Shown: positions 1 through 9,011 of the stretch, piece by piece | Numbering within the stretch: the stretch's first letter is position 1 | Layout: each line of letters opens with the position of its first letter | Source of the DNA: Rubrivivax sp. | Lineage (GTDB): Bacteria > Pseudomonadota > Gammaproteobacteria > Burkholderiales > Burkholderiaceae_C | NCBI GenBank assembly: GCA_004210455.1 | Contig: SEFA01000045.1 | Span: 1-47,930 of the forward strand | Direction: 5' to 3' | DNA: 47,930 bases | Translations under genes and position numbers: made by a program | Notes under the pieces: model-generated | What the model was told of the DNA's origin: nothing | Database searches by the model: none | Seen by the model: the letters and a program-made list of their open reading frames with translations, nothing else

Positions 1-1352
1 TCGCTGTCCCGCCCGTCCTCCGGCAGCGGGAAGGGCGTTGAACCGATACGGCGGAAGAACTCGTGATGACGGCCGTCCTGGGTCGTCCGGAAGCAGGGGT
101 CGCCCGTCTGCGTCGACACGCAGTCCGCGCTGCGCGGTCCGAGCAATTGGCCCGCGATGACGTGCGCATCGTCGACCCGCCCTGCGTCGACCAGCGCCTT
201 GTAAATCCATGGCCAATGGGCGCTCAGCCGGGAGTGCGCGTGCATCCCCTCCACCACGCCGACCAGCAGGGCGCGGCCCGGCCGGCGTTCCGCCATCAGC
301 CCGGCTCCGGCGTCGGTGATCTGGAAAGGACTGACCCGGAAGGCCGGGTACATCCGGCCTGGCCCCGCCAGATCGAAGGACGTGACGTCGGCGCTCGTGC
401 CCACGGTGAAGATGGCCAGGTCATCAATGTCGCGATCCGGCGTTTTTTTCCTGCCGGGGAAGGTCCGTTCGATCAGCGTCTTCAGGTCGTAAGCGCTCCA
501 GCGGTACCAGAGCGCGTCTTCCTCCCTCTCGGCCTTCAGCCCGCTCGTGAACCGCTCCGGCTCCTGCAGGCGCAGCCGCGCGACAGAGCGATAGACCAGC
601 GGCGCCTTCAAGTCTGGCCCGTCCCAGGACGGACCGGCCAGCGCCGCCTCTTCCGACCACGGTGTCCGCCCGTGCATCGCCTGTGCGTAAGCCACAAAGC
701 GGTAGCCGATCCCAGGGTAGATCGGCCGGCTCCGGGCGTTGCCACTGACGGCGCTCAATCGTGTGCCCTGCGTGCGGTCGTAAGGGACGGATGGGTCCGG
801 CGACAGCGACGGATCACTCAGCAGGTTCCGCTCAAGGCGATATCCGGGAATCGGCACCGTCGACTGCTTGTCCCGCCACGGCGAACGCCAACCCGGGTCA
901 GCGAACTCGACCGTGACCTCGGGAACCCGCTCGCTCAACAGGATCAAGGCCGGTGCGAGCGATGACACGTCCGAGCGGGCGACGGCATCTTTGCCGGAAG
1001 GACGACGGCGCACCTCCCCTTCGAAGACTTTCCCAGTCAGGAGTTGTTTCATCCGGACCCGATCGGTCGCCGATCCGCGCACACATCGCTGCGACGTCAG
1101 CAACACGCTCGGAGCGATCAACGTCGCGGAACAGTGTGCATCGCCGAATGTCCAGGGCGGGATCGCGTCCTTCCGGTCCTGCCGACCCCGCCATTGCGAC
1201 CAGTCGGGGGGCGGAGGGCGGACCATCGTGCCTGCTGGCACCGGGGTCTCCAGTGCCCGCATTCCCGCTGCAGCACTCGACATCCCTGTCAAAGCCGTGA
1301 GACCCAGCAACCCGGCGCGCCCGATGGCGCTGATCGTCATCTTCAATGTCAT
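1..1352 (-). CDS. Secreted trypsin-like pseudoprotease paralogue A (partial, 3' end outside window)
   Basis: The frame stays open for 450 codons from ATG at 1352 to the left edge, so the C-terminus is missing. AGGAG lies just upstream of the ATG. Residues 1-30 look like a signal peptide ending in a small-residue stretch (SSAAAG). Residues about 70-400 fit an S1 trypsin-like fold: CSATLIAPSVLLTSQRC (74-90) matches the block around the catalytic His, but His is Arg89. TDAGAG (346-351) occupies the place of GDSGGP with Ser replaced by Ala348. HWPWIYKALVDAG (379-391), near the end of the domain, is shared with the two paralogues. The visible end (HHEFFRR, 429-435) starts a C-terminal repeat like those of the paralogues. 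I infer a non-enzymatic secreted or periplasmic protein. Its partner is unknown. Confidence 0.85.
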   Translation of the reverse strand, partial: MTLKMTISAIGRAGLLGLTALTGMSSAAAGMRALETPVPAGTMVRPPPPDWSQWRGRQDRKDAIPPWTFGDAHCSATLIAPSVLLTSQRCVRGSATDRVRMKQLLTGKVFEGEVRRRPSGKDAVARSDVSSLAPALILLSERVPEVTVEFADPGWRSPWRDKQSTVPIPGYRLERNLLSDPSLSPDPSVPYDRTQGTRLSAVSGNARSRPIYPGIGYRFVAYAQAMHGRTPWSEEAALAGPSWDGPDLKAPLVYRSVARLRLQEPERFTSGLKAEREEDALWYRWSAYDLKTLIERTFPGRKKTPDRDIDDLAIFTVGTSADVTSFDLAGPGRMYPAFRVSPFQITDAGAGLMAERRPGRALLVGVVEGMHAHSRLSAHWPWIYKALVDAGRVDDAHVIAGQLLGPRSADCVSTQTGDPCFRTTQDGRHHEFFRRIGSTPFPLPEDGRDS

Positions 1353-1620
1353 TGCCTTCTCCTCGCTCACCGACATCGGCGAGCTGGATCCTCAGTCCTC
1401 GACCTCGGGCGCGACGGACCGGTCTGAACAGGTGAGGCCAACGTGCGCGTCGGCAGCATTCAGCGGATTCATGCCACATCGCCAGACACCGGATCCGCAC
1501 GTCGAAGGAGACGGTTCATCAACGGGACGCGAGGCGGTTATGCCCTGCCCCCACAAGGTGATGCTCGCAATCCCCAGTCGCGGCGTTCCAGCGCCCGCGG
1601 GGCCGGAATAATGCGCGCCC
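1353..1620. promoter_or_regulatory. Divergent intergenic region, paralogue A / spmAB
   Basis: These 268 bp separate two divergently transcribed genes and must hold both promoters. The only element I can assign is the AGGAG ribosome-binding site of paralogue A (about 1361-1365, minus strand). I find no convincing -35/-10 pair or repeat. Confidence 0.4.
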
Positions 1621-2868
1621 ATGGTGCTCAACTTCATCTGGATCGGGTTCTTCCTGATCGGCTTCGCGGTCGCGCTGGCGCGGCTGGTCCAGGGCGACCT
1701 GACCATCTTCACGCAGGTGCTCACCGGCATCTTCGACACAGCCAAGACCGGCTTCGACATCTCGCTCGGCCTGGTCGGCGTGATGAGCCTGTGGCTGGGC
1801 CTGATGAAGGTCGGCGAGAACGCCGGCGTGATCCAGCTGTTCGCGCGCGCGATGGGGCCGTTCTTCGGCCGCATCTTCCCGGAGGTGCCGCGCGGCCACC
1901 CGGCGGGCGGCTCGATGGTCATGAACTTCTCGGCCAACATGCTCGGGCTGGACAACGCCGCCACGCCGCTGGGCCTGAAAGCGATGAAGGAGCTGCAGGA
2001 GCTCAACCCGCAGAAGGACACCGCCAGCAACGCGATGATCATGTTCCTGGTGCTGAACACCGCCGGCATCACGCTGATCCCGACCTCGGTCATCGCGATC
2101 CGCCAGGCGATGGCGGTGGACCAGGGCCTGGTCGGCTTCAACGCGGCGGACATCTTCCTGCCGACGCTGGTGGCGACCTTCATCTCCTTCATGTCGGGCC
2201 TGATCGCGGTGGCCTGGGTGCAGCGCATCAACCTGTTCAGCGCACCGGTGCTGGTGTTCGTCGGCGGCTTCATCGCGATCATGGCCGCCGTGTTCGGCTG
2301 GCTGCACAGCTACCCGCCGGAGGTGATGTCGCAGTACATCGGCCTGCTGGGCAGCGGCGTGATCCTGAGCATCATCGCGACGTTCATCGCCGTCGGCGCG
2401 TGGCGTCGCATCAATGTCTACGAGTCCTTCGTCGAAGGCGCCAAGGAGGGCTTCGGCGTCGCCATCCAGATCATTCCCTACCTGATCGCGATCCTGGTGG
2501 CGATCTCGGTGTTCCGCACCACGGGCTGCATGGCGTTCGTCGTGCAGGGCATCGCCGCCGGCGTGGCCGCGCTGGGCCTGCCGACGGACTTCGTGCCGGC
2601 GCTGCCCGTCGGGCTGATGAAGACGCTGTCGGGCAGCGGCGCGCGCGGCCTGATGGTGGACGTGCTCAAGACCTACGGCGTCGACAGCTTCGAAGGCAAG
2701 CTCGCCGCGATCATCCAGGGCTCGACCGAGACCACCTTCTATGTGCTCGCCGTCTACTTCGGCAGCGTCAACATCAAGAAGACCCGCTACGCGCTGACCT
2801 GCGGGCTGCTGGCCGACGTGGTCGGCCTGGTCGGCGCGATCCTGGTGGGGTACTGGTTCTTCAAGTGA
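1621..2868 (+). CDS. SpmA-SpmB fusion, nucleoside-recognition (Gate) domain membrane protein
   Basis: A 415-residue multi-pass inner-membrane protein. The N-terminal half (about 1-200) matches SpmA, including the LGLDNAATPLGLKAMKEL segment. The C-terminal half (about 215-415) matches SpmB, with GSTETTFYVLAVYFGSV near the end. Both halves belong to the Gate/nucleoside-recognition membrane family (PF07670). In Bacillus, SpmA and SpmB are separate spore-maturation proteins. Non-sporulating proteobacteria often carry the fusion, whose transport role is unsettled. The ribosome-binding site is weak (CCGGAA). The gene lies on the opposite strand between pseudoprotease genes A and B, and its stop is only 3 bp from the stop of gene B, so the two genes converge. 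The family call is secure; the substrate is not known. Confidence 0.9.
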   Translation: MVLNFIWIGFFLIGFAVALARLVQGDLTIFTQVLTGIFDTAKTGFDISLGLVGVMSLWLGLMKVGENAGVIQLFARAMGPFFGRIFPEVPRGHPAGGSMVMNFSANMLGLDNAATPLGLKAMKELQELNPQKDTASNAMIMFLVLNTAGITLIPTSVIAIRQAMAVDQGLVGFNAADIFLPTLVATFISFMSGLIAVAWVQRINLFSAPVLVFVGGFIAIMAAVFGWLHSYPPEVMSQYIGLLGSGVILSIIATFIAVGAWRRINVYESFVEGAKEGFGVAIQIIPYLIAILVAISVFRTTGCMAFVVQGIAAGVAALGLPTDFVPALPVGLMKTLSGSGARGLMVDVLKTYGVDSFEGKLAAIIQGSTETTFYVLAVYFGSVNIKKTRYALTCGLLADVVGLVGAILVGYWFFK

Positions 2869-2871
2869 GCG

Positions 2872-4188
2872 TCAGTCGGCGAACTTCAGCCGGCGTGTGG
2901 GCAGATCGGTGCCGAGAGAGGTCCACCAGGCGTTGTCTTTGCCGTCGGTGGGGAAGTACCAGTATCGGCCGTCAGACCCGAGCGACTTCAGCCTGAAGTA
3001 CTCGACCGTGCGGGTATAGGGATTGGCGTAGATGTAGAGGTCGCCCACGACGCCATGACGATCCGTCGTCCCCCACGTCTTGACGGGCACCGTGGCCTGC
3101 TCCCGGTCCGGCAGACGGGTCCCGAGGTACTCCCAATTCAAGTCGTCACGCCGATCGGTCGGGAAGGCTCCGTAACGGCCGTCGGGGCCCACGGCGGCCA
3201 GCCGGAAGAATTCCACGTCGTATCCGTTGGGGTTCTCGCGGACGTAGATGTCCCCGACCGTGGCCCTGCGATCGTTGTCGCCCCAGGCACCGGTACCCAG
3301 CACCGTCTTCGCCAACCCCACCGCGTCGGCGATCAGGCCCTCGCTCATCAGCCTGTCGTAGATCCAGGGCATCTGATGGCTGAGCCGTAGATGCGTGGCC
3401 TTCGACGTGACGCTCGCCACCAGCCACTCCTCGCCACTGGCGTCCTGCGCGAAGATGCCAGAACCCATGTCGGGGCTCCCCGGGCCCGGAACGATCGGCG
3501 AGGACAGGCCTCGCGCCCGGTCTGCGACGGTGGGAGCGACCACCAGGACCATGTCATCCACGTCCTGGTCGGTCAGCCCCGATCCAAAGGTCGCCGAAGG
3601 CTCGTCGGCGAGGACCTCCCGCCAAGTCCGATACACGATCGGCGTCGATGGCTGGCTCGAGCCGTGGAATTGCGTGGTCCGGCGCGCGTCAAGCGAGAGG
3701 AGGCCGGTGCCCGCGGCGCGATCCGTTCCATAAACGACCAAGGGGGTCGCCGCGCCGGCGGTCAGCAGCGTCTTCTCCTTTTGATAGCTGGGAATACGCG
3801 CGCGGGGCACATTCCCCGGACCGCCGTAAAGCGCGCTCAACCGATCCTGAAACCGGATCAGACCGATCTCTCCCAGCACCTCTGGCGCACCTGCTTGCGT
3901 GACGGCGTGAGTCCCCATCGGGGTCATGGGCCAGGATCGTCCGGTCTGGCGCTGGAACACGCCATCGAGGAGGCGGAACTGGAACGGTCGTCCACAGGTC
4001 AATGCCACCCTGGGCGTGATCAGCACCGCAGAGCAGGCAGGCGTCGCCGACAGGACCCACCCGGGCACTTCGCTCTCCTGCAGGGACGTGCCGCTGGGCT
4101 TGAGTGCCTGGGCGTGCAAGGCAGTGATGCCCAGCGCGAAACCCAGGCCCCATCGGACCAGCAGGGTGTTGTTCATGTTCGACTTCAT
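2872..4188 (-). CDS. Secreted trypsin-like pseudoprotease paralogue B with two C-terminal repeats
   Basis: I chose ATG 4188 (438 aa): AGGAG lies 6 nt upstream and a signal peptide follows at once (MKSNMNNTLL...ITALHAQA, cleavage near 28). ATG 4191 is the alternative. Residues about 43-300 form an S1-like domain: CSAVLITPRVALTCGRP (52-68) covers the His block, but Arg67 and Pro68 replace His and Cys. PDMGSG (239-244) replaces the Ser block, with Met241 at the Ser position. HQMPWIYDRLMSEG (271-284) is the family helix. Two repeats follow (about 303-361 and 373-431), each with Tyr-containing beta strands, (V/T)E(F/Y)FRL, G(P/S)DGRY, FPTD and W..LGT.LP. The gene lies 124 nt downstream of paralogue C and is probably cotranscribed with it. 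Predicted to be exported and non-catalytic. Confidence 0.88.
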   Translation of the reverse strand: MKSNMNNTLLVRWGLGFALGITALHAQALKPSGTSLQESEVPGWVLSATPACSAVLITPRVALTCGRPFQFRLLDGVFQRQTGRSWPMTPMGTHAVTQAGAPEVLGEIGLIRFQDRLSALYGGPGNVPRARIPSYQKEKTLLTAGAATPLVVYGTDRAAGTGLLSLDARRTTQFHGSSQPSTPIVYRTWREVLADEPSATFGSGLTDQDVDDMVLVVAPTVADRARGLSSPIVPGPGSPDMGSGIFAQDASGEEWLVASVTSKATHLRLSHQMPWIYDRLMSEGLIADAVGLAKTVLGTGAWGDNDRRATVGDIYVRENPNGYDVEFFRLAAVGPDGRYGAFPTDRRDDLNWEYLGTRLPDREQATVPVKTWGTTDRHGVVGDLYIYANPYTRTVEYFRLKSLGSDGRYWYFPTDGKDNAWWTSLGTDLPTRRLKFAD

Positions 4189-4312
4189 CATCGGCTCCTG
4201 TCTTGCAAAACCACGCGCCACGATGCGTGGGGAGGCTTCGTCCCGTCGACTCAGGCACAGGTTCAATCCGCAGACCTTGCGAACAGGGATGGCCGGGCAG
4301 CTCGCGCGCAAG

Positions 4313-6790
4313 TCAGGCGCATCCACCGGGCCCGCCCTCTTCGGCTGGCGGTGTCGGCAAGTCCGTCCCTCGATATCGCCAATGGCGGCTGTCCGTGCCA
4401 TTGGAGGGCGGCGGTTCGTATCCGCCTTCCGCAAAGGGAGCCACGAGCTCAAAGTATTCAAGGCGCCTGTTGACGTCGCTCCAGTGAACGAACAGCTCAC
4501 CAGCCGAGCCGTTGACTCCCGGGGACCCGGCCTTGACCGGCGTCAGCACCACATCGCAGGACGGCAATTCCGTCCCGAGGTACTCCCACTCTTCGTTGTC
4601 CTTCCGGTCGATCGGGAAGTAGCCGTAGCCATTCGAACCGCGGTCGGCGGCGAGGCGAAAGAACTCCACCTCCGCCGTCCACGGGTTGTCGTAAGCGTAG
4701 ACCCGCCCGACGACGCCACGCCGATCGAACGACTGCCAGTCGAGCAGGTCCGGACGCAGGTGGCCCAGCCGTGATTGCTGTACCCGCCGACGCGTCAGCG
4801 GGAGTCTCAGCGCATGCTCGATGTCCTGCCACGGATTCAGCACCTGCGAGGCCAGGATCAAGGCGTCCTCGCGGGCACCAGCGTTCATCAACGTGCGATA
4901 GATCCACGGCCAATGGTGGCTCATGCGCGGCGAACCTTCGAGGCCGTCGCGCATCACCGCGAACGGACCCCAGGTTTGCTCTTCGCGGACCCCCTTCAAG
5001 AACATCACCTTGCCACGCGGCAAGGTCCAGGAGGGGTTCGCCAAGACTTGAAGACCGTATCGGACCGTCGCCCGCGCTCGATAGCTGAAGAGGACAAGCT
5101 GCTGTTCCCAATCCTCCTTGGTCATGGGCATCCGTTGCTGCAGAAACCTGTCGCCTTCGCTGGCGGACAGGAGTTGGCGCTCCAGCTGATAACTGTTCAC
5201 ATAGGGACGCTGCCCATCCTTCAAAGGTGCGGGACCATCGAGGACCACCAGACCAAGACCCGGAAGTCCGGTCGTTTCAGCCGGCGCTTGCGCTTGCGAA
5301 CGGAAGCCTTTTCCGACCAGGATCTCTCCCGTCTCCAGCAGCTTGAATCGAGTCGGCCCGCCGTCCGCGACGCAGTCTGACGCGGTGATGATCGCGCGAC
5401 GCGCGATCAGCGCGCCCTCACACGCCTCATTCGCGACTCGGATCGGCGGCCGGGACTGGTCCAGATGCAGGCTCTGCTGGAAGTCGATGTCCCTGGACAG
5501 GTTGACGGCAGTGAGATTGGTACCGACATAGGCCCAATGGCGGCTCTGTTGCCCCGGCCGCGGAAAGGGGGCCAGTCTGCCATCGTTGCCGATCGCCAGC
5601 AGGCGGTAGTACTCGACGCCACCGTCGGCCCGACGCACATTGACGGCCATGGTCCCTATCGGCGTTTTCCCGTCGTCCGGCGCTGCCAGCGGCGAGCCAC
5701 GAAACGGGGTCGTCGCCGAAGCGAGGCTGGGCAGTTCCTCGCCCAGGTATTCCCATCCGTTGCCGTCACGCGAGCCGGGTGGCAACGGGCCCGGACGTCC
5801 ATCCGGCGAGGCCTTCACCAGTCGGAAGAACTCGATCTTCCTGGAGTCCTTGTGCTCGCGGGGCCATATGCTGCCCAGAGGCAATTCACGCATCGAGCCG
5901 CGCCAATCCTTCGCGGCGGCGTGGCCGTCGAGGCCCTTGAAGGGATGCAGCACGCGAAGCGCGAGGGACAGCGCGTCTTCACGCAAACCGTGATCGAGCA
6001 GGATCCGGTATGCCCGCGGCCAGAAGTTGCTGACCCTGACGTGGAACAGCGATTCGGTCGACAGACTCACGAGGCCCTGTTCCGCCCCCTTGCCCGCAAG
6101 GATGGCGCCGCCCCAGTTGTCGAGCGGAAAGTAGTACAACGCACCATTGAGGGTGAGCCAAGGCGGGATGGCGATCACCGAGTCGGCGTGGCCCAACATG
6201 TCCGCCAGGACGGCATTCGTCGGCCTGCCATAGTTCCAGATCCGGAAGGAGTCGGCGACGCTGGCCAGTGCCACTGGCTCAAACGGCACCTGACCTCCGA
6301 TGCCCATGAAGTAGTCGTAGCGAATCACGCCCAAAGGTTCGGCCTTCATGATGGGCTTACGCCAGTCGAAGGGCGCACTTCGGGTCAGCGGTCCATAGAC
6401 CGTCAGCGGCGTCCCCTCGACGACCATCTGCTGCTCGCTCCGGTAGGACGGAATGGGGACCAGCGGCCTGTCGACGGCCTGGTCCAGCACGATCGCGGCG
6501 ATGTCGTCGTGCGGCCCCCTGACGGCGGCCGGCGCGATCACCGTGCCCTTGGCGGGTGTCATGTCGTCCAAGTGCAGGAATATCTCCGACGGATACTCCT
6601 TCACACATCGTGCGTTGGCCAGGGCCATCCGGGGCGAGATCAGCGTGGCCTGGCATCTGTGATGGCCCAGCGCCCAGCCGGGTACGTCCCCGCCGAGCAG
6701 TTCGTTGCCGAATTCCCCGGCAGGCGAGGCGGTGGCATACGCCGCCAAGCAGAGACCAGTGGCAGCCGGGAGGAGCTTCCTGAGCGACAT
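4313..6790 (-). CDS. Secreted double-module pseudoprotease paralogue C (two S1-like domains, four repeats)
   Basis: 825 residues with signal peptide MSLRKLLPAATGLCLAAYA. It is an internal duplication: S1-like domain 1 (about 35-290) plus repeats at 304-354 and 375-425, then S1-like domain 2 (about 450-660) plus repeats at 691-744 and 761-813. Domain 1 has LISPRMALANARC (50-62), with Arg61 at the His position. DDIAAI (95-100) keeps the Asp. LDNWGGA (223-229) stands where GDSGGP should be. Domain 2 has LIARRAIITASDC (461-473), with Asp472 at the His position, and lacks recognisable Asp and Ser motifs. Each domain ends in the family FWPRAY / HWPWIY helix. It is codirectional with the LytTR regulator 93 bp upstream. 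No strong ribosome-binding site is visible. Confidence 0.88.
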   Translation of the reverse strand: MSLRKLLPAATGLCLAAYATASPAGEFGNELLGGDVPGWALGHHRCQATLISPRMALANARCVKEYPSEIFLHLDDMTPAKGTVIAPAAVRGPHDDIAAIVLDQAVDRPLVPIPSYRSEQQMVVEGTPLTVYGPLTRSAPFDWRKPIMKAEPLGVIRYDYFMGIGGQVPFEPVALASVADSFRIWNYGRPTNAVLADMLGHADSVIAIPPWLTLNGALYYFPLDNWGGAILAGKGAEQGLVSLSTESLFHVRVSNFWPRAYRILLDHGLREDALSLALRVLHPFKGLDGHAAAKDWRGSMRELPLGSIWPREHKDSRKIEFFRLVKASPDGRPGPLPPGSRDGNGWEYLGEELPSLASATTPFRGSPLAAPDDGKTPIGTMAVNVRRADGGVEYYRLLAIGNDGRLAPFPRPGQQSRHWAYVGTNLTAVNLSRDIDFQQSLHLDQSRPPIRVANEACEGALIARRAIITASDCVADGGPTRFKLLETGEILVGKGFRSQAQAPAETTGLPGLGLVVLDGPAPLKDGQRPYVNSYQLERQLLSASEGDRFLQQRMPMTKEDWEQQLVLFSYRARATVRYGLQVLANPSWTLPRGKVMFLKGVREEQTWGPFAVMRDGLEGSPRMSHHWPWIYRTLMNAGAREDALILASQVLNPWQDIEHALRLPLTRRRVQQSRLGHLRPDLLDWQSFDRRGVVGRVYAYDNPWTAEVEFFRLAADRGSNGYGYFPIDRKDNEEWEYLGTELPSCDVVLTPVKAGSPGVNGSAGELFVHWSDVNRRLEYFELVAPFAEGGYEPPPSNGTDSRHWRYRGTDLPTPPAEEGGPGGCA

Positions 6791-6883: not shown

Positions 6884-7708
6884 TCACATCGACTTGAACA
6901 GATGCACGTAGGCCCGGCTCACGGGCAGCTCACTCGCATGACCGCGCACGCGCACGAACAGGCGGCTCAGTTCGTCGCGCCGCGTGCCGGTCACGTGGTC
7001 CAGGTTCACGATCGTCGAGCGGTGCACCTGCCAGAAGCGCTCGCCGTCGAGTTGTCCAGCAAGCTCGTGGATCGAGGTACGGATCAAGTATTCGGTCGTC
7101 GCGGTCTGGACGCAGGTGTACTTGTCGTCGGCGCGGAAGAAGAGCACCTCGTCGACGGGCACCTGATGCATCAGGTCGCCCTGTGTCGCGCGTATCCAGC
7201 GCAGCGGTCCGACCGGCCTGGACATCGCCCCGCCCGGTGCATGCAGGCGGCGCAGCGCGGCGAGCAGCCGGGCGTCCACGGCGTCCCCGCTGTCATCGGC
7301 CACGCCCGCCGCCGGCTTCGTCAGCGCGCGACGGATCCGTCCGACGGTGCGGGCAAGCCGGTCCGCCTCGACAGGCTTGAGCACGTAGTCGATCGCCTCC
7401 TGCTCGAAGGCCTGCACCGCGTACTGGTCATAGGCGGTGACGAAGACGACGCGCGTCCCGCCCTCGATGCCTTCGGCGACCTCCAGTCCCGTGAGACCCG
7501 GCATCTGGATGTCCAGGAAGGCCAGGTCCGGCTGCCGCGCCGCGATCTGCTCCGCCGCCTCCTGGCCGTTGCGGGCGATGTGGACGATGTCGAGGTCCGG
7601 CCAGACGACGCCCAGCTGGGCGGCGAGGGCGCGAGCCAGATGCGGTTCGTCGTCGGCGATCAGCGCGGTGAATGTGGCGGAAGCGGTGGGTGCGGTGGGA
7701 ATGCTCAT
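6884..7708 (-). CDS. LytTR-family response regulator
   Basis: 274 aa. An N-terminal receiver domain (about 12-130) has the acidic pair Asp19-Asp20 with Glu21, the phospho-acceptor Asp66 in LAFLDIQMPG, Thr91 and Lys111 in YVLKPVEADR. A C-terminal LytTR DNA-binding domain (about 168-274) contains WIRATQGD, the DDKYTCV segment, FWQVHRSTIVNL and the closing LPVSRAYVHLFKSM. It would be phosphorylated by the histidine kinase encoded 38 nt upstream on the same strand (stop 7747, start here 7708). Start ATG 7708 gives a short leader before the receiver domain. The next gene downstream is pseudoprotease paralogue C, a possible target. Confidence 0.93.
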   Translation of the reverse strand: MSIPTAPTASATFTALIADDEPHLARALAAQLGVVWPDLDIVHIARNGQEAAEQIAARQPDLAFLDIQMPGLTGLEVAEGIEGGTRVVFVTAYDQYAVQAFEQEAIDYVLKPVEADRLARTVGRIRRALTKPAAGVADDSGDAVDARLLAALRRLHAPGGAMSRPVGPLRWIRATQGDLMHQVPVDEVLFFRADDKYTCVQTATTEYLIRTSIHELAGQLDGERFWQVHRSTIVNLDHVTGTRRDELSRLFVRVRGHASELPVSRAYVHLFKSM

Positions 7709-7746
7709 GATCGTTGACTGGGCGTAGCGGTCGGCGGTCGGCGGGA

Positions 7747-8886
7747 TCAGACATCCAGCGGCACGCGCAGCGTGACGCGGCAGCCCGGTTCGGCGGGTTC
7801 GAGGGTCAGCGACGCGCGGTCGCCGTAGTGCGTCATCAGGCGCTCGCGGAGGTTGACGAGCGCGATGCCGTTGCCGGCGCGGCGCGAGGCACCGGGACCG
7901 ACGCCGTCGTCGCGCACCTCGACCACCAGGAAACCGTCGTTCAACGCGGCGTCGACGCGCACCGTGCCGCCCTCGATCTTCGGTTCGAGGCCGTGATGGA
8001 CCGCGTTCTCGACCAGCGGCTGCAGCAGCATCGGCGGCAGCGGGACGACGCGGGCCTCGGGAGAGGCGCTGATCTCGACACGCAGCCGGTCTTCCATCCG
8101 CGTCTGCAGCACCGTCAGGTAGGCGGCGGCCAGCGACAGCTCGTCGTCCAGAGGCCCCGTCTCGCGGCGCAGACCGCCGAGCGACGCCCGCAGATAGGCG
8201 GTGAACGCGCCCAGCATCTCCTTGGCCTTGGGCGCGTCGTAGTCGATCAGCGAGTGCACGTTGGCCAGCGTGTTGAACAGGAAGTGCGGCTCGATCTGTC
8301 CCTGCAGCAGGCGCAACTGCGCCTCGGTGGCGCGGCGCTCGGCGTTGAGCTGCCGGTTCCTGGACGCGAACCAGTGATGCAGCACGAAGGTGATGCACAG
8401 CGACAGCGCGGACGTGATGCCGATGATCTTCCCGCCCTGCGCCCAGTCCAACCGGACCCAGCCCGCCAGTCCCGCCATCCACATGCCCGGCACCCAGCCG
8501 ATCAGCACGCCCAGCAGCGGCACGCCGGAGAAGAACACCGTGCGCTTCCAGTTCGCCCAGGCGCGGATGCGGGGACGGCCGCCGAAGAGCGGCACGAGGA
8601 CGGTGAACAGGGTCTGGATGAGCAGGCCGATGGTCAGGCAGACGATGACGTTCTTCCAGTACCACCAGGCCCAGATCGCGGGATCGGTCCAGCGGGCGGT
8701 GCGGGCGTTCAGGACAAAACCCAGGACCGTGAAGCCGACCGCCAGTGCGCAGGAGAACAGCACCGTCCAGATCCACTGCAGCCACGCGGGGCCGCTGGGC
8801 CGGGCGTCGTTGCTCAGCCAGGCATGCCAGGAGGCACGCAGCCGGCGCGCATCGCGCCAGAGGGGACGGGACGGAGCGGGAGTCAT
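7747..8886 (-). CDS. LytS/YehU-type sensor histidine kinase
   Basis: With ATG 8886 the protein is 379 aa. Hydrophobic segments at about 38-58, 77-101, 117-143 and 153-173 predict four membrane spans with no large periplasmic domain. The cytoplasmic part holds the His_kinase block QIEPHFLFNTL (His201) and an ATPase domain with VENAVHHG (293-299), DDGVG (326-330) and GNGIALVNLRERL. This is the arrangement of LytS/YpdA/YehU-type kinases that pair with LytTR regulators, as here. The longer reading frame from 8979 adds an arginine- and serine-rich stretch without a ribosome-binding site, so I rejected that start. The stimulus is unknown. Confidence 0.92.
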   Translation of the reverse strand: MTPAPSRPLWRDARRLRASWHAWLSNDARPSGPAWLQWIWTVLFSCALAVGFTVLGFVLNARTARWTDPAIWAWWYWKNVIVCLTIGLLIQTLFTVLVPLFGGRPRIRAWANWKRTVFFSGVPLLGVLIGWVPGMWMAGLAGWVRLDWAQGGKIIGITSALSLCITFVLHHWFASRNRQLNAERRATEAQLRLLQGQIEPHFLFNTLANVHSLIDYDAPKAKEMLGAFTAYLRASLGGLRRETGPLDDELSLAAAYLTVLQTRMEDRLRVEISASPEARVVPLPPMLLQPLVENAVHHGLEPKIEGGTVRVDAALNDGFLVVEVRDDGVGPGASRRAGNGIALVNLRERLMTHYGDRASLTLEPAEPGCRVTLRVPLDV

Positions 8887-9011
8887 GCGGCGCAGTGTAG
8901 GGAGACGCCGGGGTCCCTCGGACGGGGGAAACGACGGATCGACGGCGTGACGGATGGATCGACAGCGCCGGGTGCCCAATAATCCGCCGGACGCATTCCA
9001 CGGAGACCCGC

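What the first reader, a model, noticed from the sequence alone, without database searches (positions are those of the whole stretch)
1..6790. Cluster of three secreted S1-fold pseudoproteases that all lost the catalytic His and Ser
Four trypsin-like domains in three paralogous genes keep the CxxxLI(S/T/A)(P/R)xxxL(T/A) scaffold but replace the catalytic His (Arg89 in A, Arg67 in B, Arg61 and Asp472 in C). The Ser block is Ala, Met or unrecognisable. Independent substitutions with conserved flanks argue for selection on a non-enzymatic role (binding, decoy, inhibitor or sensor) rather than decay. All are exported and carry a shared WPWIY helix; B and C also have terminal repeats, and A begins one at the edge.
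Basis: partly seen in the sequence, partly recalled or inferred. Interest (0 to 1): 0.8.

Follow-up and report, generated by a model that had tools for sequence, protein, structure and literature searches.

The report
Variable array of dead secreted proteases
A bacterium of the genus Roseateles carries a fast-changing set of apparently exported proteins built like the protein-cutting enzyme trypsin but without its cutting machinery, and these probably work by sticking to something outside the cell rather than by cutting.

The parts
3..1376 (-). Gene A: signal-like N-terminus, S1-like pseudoprotease domain (129-1172), start of first C-terminal module at the contig edge
   Evidence: continues on G000:C114 (49-bp exact end overlap)
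129..1172 (-). S1-like domain of A; Arg at His57 place, Ala at Ser195 place
1621..2868 (+). Conserved spmA-like gene (nucleoside recognition 'Gate' domain) between the two slots of the array
   Evidence: Pfam PF07670; present in 16 of 16 genus genomes; the name spmA is recalled
2872..4191 (-). Gene B: signal-like N-terminus, S1-like domain, two Hbp-d2-like modules
3286..4074 (-). S1-like domain of B; Arg at His57 place, Met at Ser195 place
3109..3273 (-). Hbp-d2-like module 1 of B
2899..3063 (-). Hbp-d2-like module 2 of B
4313..6790 (-). Gene C: two S1-like domains, each followed by two Hbp-d2-like modules
5936..6694 (-). First S1-like domain of C; Arg61 at His57 place, Trp at Ser195 place, Asp102 kept
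5729..5893 (-). Hbp-d2-like module 1 of C
5510..5674 (-). Hbp-d2-like module 2 of C
4826..5461 (-). Second S1-like domain of C; Asp472 at His57 place, Ser195 block unrecognisable
4562..4726 (-). Hbp-d2-like module 3 of C
4355..4519 (-). Hbp-d2-like module 4 of C
6884..7717 (-). LytTR-type response regulator, conserved flank of slot 2
   Evidence: family name recalled from sequence; orthologues by blastx
7747..8979 (-). Histidine kinase, conserved flank
   Evidence: family name recalled from sequence; orthologues by blastx

Best explanation
These are members of a family of exported, catalytically dead S1-fold proteins, found here only in Roseateles and kept as a variable gene array at one chromosomal place. 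Shown or predicted: S1 fold (model), no catalytic His in any of 17 domains, mixed Ser and Asp positions, Hbp-d2-like C-terminal modules, purifying but fast evolution, and copy-number change at a site with conserved flanks. Inferred: the d2-like modules tether the protein to a glycan (chitin, wall or exopolysaccharide), and the S1 domain binds a changing protein target of competitors, prey, host or phage, so the protein works by binding, not cutting.
For: No His at position 57 in 17 of 17 domains, while Cys42 and Gly196 are invariant and Cys58 is kept in 16 of 17. S1 fold by model and structure comparison. The 12 profile hits outside the genus keep the His motif. C/C orthologue pair dN 0.248, dN/dS 0.47 (0.39-0.57); its S1 parts 0.66 and 0.54, its modules 0.34 and 0.27. 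Controls in the same genome pair: secreted S8 subtilase dN 0.037, dN/dS 0.09; spmA 0.005/0.04; RR 0.011/0.05; LytTR 0.064/0.16; HK 0.051/0.22; four HtrA-type proteases dN 0.008-0.066, dN/dS 0.04-0.19. The same module sits on a GH19 chitinase and a PI-PLC-X protein of the genus. Slot 1 is empty (110-156 bp) in 4 genomes where spmA lies next to the same regulator gene.
Against: No target, ligand or phenotype was shown. Glycan binding is inferred from a module with no function assigned in Hbp (PMC9289746, passage). A higher dN/dS of the S1 part is seen only in C, and there only C1 against modules 3-4 has separate bootstrap intervals; F39/F43 and B40/B41 lean the other way with overlapping intervals (0.39 vs 0.56; 0.34 vs 0.43). 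Pfam Trypsin misses A, B and six of seven relatives scanned, the seventh lying just under its cut-off. Signal peptides were judged by eye only.
Confidence: 0.6

Rival explanations
1. Decoys for protease inhibitors: the dead S1 domain soaks up protein inhibitors from plants, fungi or competitors and so protects active secreted proteases such as the S8 subtilase in the same window.
For: The S1 fold is a natural ligand of protein protease inhibitors (general knowledge); a subtilase gene (family recalled from sequence) lies in the same window; fast change fits an arms race.
Against: Inhibitors of subtilisins need not bind an S1 domain; the cleft residues could not be judged from models with mean pLDDT 68-73.
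Confidence: 0.18
2. Non-functional remnants: a former protease family drifting to loss.
For: Truncated copy in G011; patchy presence, 7 of 16 genomes; fast evolution.
Against: Long open frames without stops in 6 genomes; dN/dS upper bootstrap limits below 1 in the nine pairs or segments tested; invariant Cys42 and Gly196.
Confidence: 0.1
3. Still enzymes, using a non-classical site or another chemistry.
For: Three of 17 domains keep Ser in the Ser195 place, two of them as DSGAG (D42) and TSGGG (F43).
Against: No one residue type holds the His57, Asp102 or Ser195 place; eight types occur at His57 and nine at Ser195.
Confidence: 0.07
4. Self- or kin-recognition or surface-structure proteins, with diversity kept by selection between strains rather than against an outside target.
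For: Species-variable array between conserved flanks, with duplication scars.
Against: I saw no partner, receptor or toxin-immunity pairing in the flanks read; this was not searched systematically.
Confidence: 0.12

Closest known systems
S1 (chymotrypsin-like) peptidases, MEROPS family S1 / PF00089
   Same: Fold and the Cys42-Cys58 and Gly196 blocks; C passes the Pfam cut-off
   Different: No catalytic His in any of 17 domains, Ser in 3, Asp in 5
Prokaryotic serine protease homologues (SPHs), 42 of 966 serine proteases over five families in 91 genomes in PMC2605481 (passages read)
   Same: Prokaryotic serine-protease relatives lacking catalytic residues
   Different: Here a fast-evolving multigene array, found only in one genus, with repeated d2-like modules
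[quoted passage not shown] passage in PMC5553898; S1 membership and expansion recalled)
   Same: Family of inactivated protease paralogues; reported there, with mite serpins, to inhibit complement
   Different: Animal, not bacterial; no d2-like modules (recalled); no common recent origin claimed
Insect serine protease homologue PPAF-II (2b9l), top VIA row for the C2 model; its inactive status is recalled
   Same: Inactive S1 fold
   Different: Clip domain and insect immunity role (recalled)
Hbp and other class 2 SPATE autotransporters (1wxr)
   Same: S1-like domain plus the same d2 module (E 2.9e-13; 63 columns at 41% identity, rmsd 1.5)
   Different: Active protease, beta-helix and translocator in Hbp (known); here no such domain was detected and the modules stand in tandem after a dead S1 domain

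Membership tests
S1 peptidase | Chymotrypsin-like fold | tested here: met
S1 peptidase | Catalytic His57 | tested here: not met
   0 of 17 domains
S1 peptidase | Catalytic Asp102 | tested here: not met
   5 of 17 domains; in the window only C1
S1 peptidase | Catalytic Ser195 | tested here: not met
   3 of 17 domains, none in the window
S1 peptidase | Proteolytic activity | not testable with these tools
   needs purified protein
Serine protease homologue (catalytically inactive S1 relative) | S1 fold with one or more triad residues lost | tested here: met
Serine protease homologue (catalytically inactive S1 relative) | Known non-enzymatic role | not testable with these tools
   no target known
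SPATE / S6 autotransporter | d2 chitin-binding-like module | tested here: met
SPATE / S6 autotransporter | C-terminal beta-barrel translocator and beta-helix passenger | tested here: not met
   no such Pfam family in A, B or C at E up to 1; S1 domains plus modules account for nearly all of B and C. A is cut at the contig edge; its remainder on C114 is 81 more residues, module-like
Chitin-binding module | Binds chitin | not testable with these tools
   only resemblance; no function assigned to d2 in PMC9289746 (passage)

The most novel reading that the evidence does not exclude
Roseateles uses the dead trypsin fold as a diversifying recognition scaffold: a hypervariable locus of glycan-tethered pseudoproteases, gained, duplicated and replaced between conserved genes, whose S1 domains are selected to bind changing outside targets. 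This would be a bacterial counterpart of the expanded dead-protease families of parasitic mites and insects.
Probability: 0.35. Interest if true: 0.75.

Novelty: new variant of a known kind. Interest (0 to 1): 0.52.

Why it matters
Expanded families of dead S1 proteases are best known from animals (recalled). A bacterial family in which no domain found keeps His, under purifying selection yet evolving several to fifty times faster in dN than its neighbours, points to non-enzymatic selection on the trypsin fold. It offers a compact system for asking what such proteins bind. It also warns that 'trypsin-like' labels in bacterial secretomes can hide non-enzymes, and it adds new settings (dead S1, GH19 chitinase, PI-PLC-X) for the Hbp d2 module, which has no assigned function in the review whose passages I read.

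Tried and rejected
A conserved C-terminal tail (PLPGTGPxLPAPxAAR) in several slot-1 proteins looked like a sorting signal. It is better explained by the genes overlapping the 3' end of the convergent response-regulator gene by 44-53 bp in 6 genomes; in R. noduli, gene E, not adjacent to that gene, ends in a relic of it. Rejected as a sorting signal.

WPWIY as a special shared helix: rejected; it lies at the start of model helix 241-254 in B, within the thrombin alignment.

Separate losses of His in each window gene: not favoured (17 of 17 lack it). The tree has 6 of 14 inner branches well supported, weak deep ones and long branches (X39, C43, B), so nine changes is a rough minimum.

An active member inside the family: not found. 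Genus 7 of 16 genomes match; family 4 of 299 at 1e-4, order 3 of 399 and phylum 8 of 398 at 1e-5, the own genome counted in each. The large searches scored only the best 5-7 candidates a genome. Of the 12 outside hits the loci of all keep a His motif (L056 by eye, 11 by pattern). A GDSGGP-like motif was matched in 6 of 12; the other 6 were not looked at for Ser.

Other S1-type proteins: of the own genome's six PF00089 hits five gave HtrA-like or related frames and L054 none by my motifs. R. noduli has seven, among them one intact-looking trypsin-like protein with TAAHC and GDSGG (L112); it lies elsewhere and is not among the family-profile matches at 1e-3.

A PI-PLC control found no match in R. 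noduli at 1e-20. A row C_3 found by my repeat pattern was S1 sequence and was dropped before the profile. A first dN/dS of the S8 control used the wrong strand and is void (right one). NG86 dN/dS is an average; dS of C (0.53) exceeds that of the six flanking genes, four HtrA-type controls and S8 (0.14-0.41), so older alleles or recombination may add to the divergence.

In the first attempt to file I had written 84-99% for flank identity (a 129-residue match is 79.8%), five flanking genes instead of six, that all S1 and module intervals overlap (one pair in C does not), and HELGH in four genomes instead of three; mended here.

Full report
What is there. On the minus strand lie A (3-1376, cut by the contig end), B (2872-4191) and C (4313-6790), with an spmA-like gene on the plus strand between A and B. 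The end of A overlaps contig C114 by 49 identical bases and stays in frame; C114 then holds a fourth paralogue, D. So the array has at least four genes and five S1-like domains.

The C-terminal modules. Repeats of about 55 residues (two in B, four in C) match domain d2 of the autotransporter Hbp: profile E 2.9e-13, 41% identity and rmsd 1.5 over 63 columns with the model. [quoted passage not shown] The other three hits of the same profile are two designed repeat proteins, with no stretch passing on its own, and one at E 0.17; I judge them chance. The module also occurs on a GH19 chitinase and a PI-PLC-X protein of the genus. So the modules are probably targeting parts of an exported set, but glycan binding is inferred.

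Family range. In the genus 7 of 16 genomes match the S1 profile: 17 complete domains in six, one truncated in the seventh. In wider samples the only other matches are weak (24.6-30.4 bits) and the loci of all 12 keep the His motif. Limits: only 5-7 candidates per genome were scored there, one genome per species is held, and metagenomes were not searched.

The locus. Conserved genes run kinase - LytTR regulator - slot 2 - spmA - slot 1 - response regulator - hybrid kinase - MetQ in the window genome and its nearest relatives; the kinase and LytTR genes were not seen in the stretches of G001, G014 and the more distant members (names recalled). Slot 1 is empty, 110-156 bp, in G003, G004, G008 and G013. 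It holds one to three family genes in six genomes and a truncated one in G011. In G009, G010 and G012 spmA is followed on that side by an unrelated long frame with a HELGH motif; G015 has a similar frame whose printout ends before that stretch; G005 was not resolved. In slot 2, G002, G003, G004, G011 and G013 have a GGDEF-type gene (GGEEF motif) where the window and R. noduli have family genes; G007 has both. In R. noduli a 210-bp copy of the LytTR 3' end, 100% identical, lies between two family genes, and a relic of the regulator 3' end lies behind gene E. These look like scars of duplication or recombination carrying flanking DNA.

Tempo. Window vs R. noduli: spmA 98.8% identical (dN 0.005), regulator 97.9% (0.011), sigma factor 97.4% over 271 codons (0.012), hybrid kinase 94.6% (0.030), kinase 89.7% (0.051), LytTR 89.5% (0.064); secreted S8 subtilase 93.3% (0.037); four HtrA-type proteases dN 0.008-0.066. 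Gene C is 65.1% (dN 0.248, dS 0.526, dN/dS 0.47, 0.39-0.57). In R. noduli the best long match of A is 31% identical, of B 30% (39% over 196 residues), of D 40%. In C the S1 parts have higher dN/dS (0.66, interval 0.48-0.89; 0.54, 0.37-0.78) than the modules (0.34, 0.21-0.57; 0.27, 0.15-0.45); only the first S1 part against modules 3-4 is clear of overlap. Two other pairs lean the other way with overlap (0.39 vs 0.56; 0.34 vs 0.43). The nine values bootstrapped stay below 1; four further pairs, not bootstrapped, are 0.46-0.50. This speaks against simple decay for the copies tested but does not prove positive selection.

How it most likely works. Exported by a signal peptide (by eye), held near a glycan by the d2-like modules, and binding a protein with the dead S1 domain. 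The S1 fold, the missing triad, the modules and the tempo are shown or predicted; binding, target and tether are inferred. Decoys for protease inhibitors are the best rival.

What is known. A survey lists 42 putative inactive homologues among 966 prokaryotic serine proteases of five families (PMC2605481, passages). Mite SMIPPs are an inactivated protease family said, with mite serpins, to inhibit complement (PMC5553898, passage). Searches for bacterial pseudoprotease families and for Roseateles or Mitsuaria showed no title on these genes among the papers listed: 5 of 5, 15 of 5,695, 12 of 17, 1 of 1, 10 of 47; this is a thin test of what is in print. I call it a new variant of a known kind.

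Noticed in passing
L039 3726-3935 and 5740-5949: A 210-bp copy of the LytTR regulator 3' end, 100% identical, lies between two pseudoprotease genes in R. noduli: a recent recombination scar.
   Followed up: partly
L037 1941-1990, L039 14681-14730, L040 6522-6565, L041 6932-6981, L042 7600-7643, L043 9550-9602: The last slot-1 gene overlaps the 3' end of the convergent response-regulator gene by 44-53 bp in six genomes, which explains a shared C-terminal tail.
   Followed up: yes
L038 1560-3017: A PI-PLC-X protein of the window genome carries two of the same Hbp-d2-like modules; no match in R. noduli at 1e-20.
   Followed up: partly
L045 1855-4014 (similar: L046, L047): GH19 chitinase (Pfam on L045) of a genus member without the array carries two of the modules by eye; L046 and L047 look alike by sequence but were not scanned.
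   Followed up: partly
L044 5076-5792: Truncated pseudoprotease gene in G011; the profile matches only positions 16-170 of 288: decay of the array.
   Followed up: partly
L103, L104, L105 beside spmA (similar frame in L100): A long frame with a HELGH motif (metallopeptidase-like, recalled M2) occupies slot 1 instead of the family genes.
   Followed up: no
G000:C158:48717-48905: A frame of about 2500 codons matches the B module (E 1.1e-7); protein not identified.
   Followed up: no
L112 1333-3102: R. noduli has an intact-looking trypsin-like protein (TAAHC, GDSGG) outside the array; not matched by the family profile.
   Followed up: no
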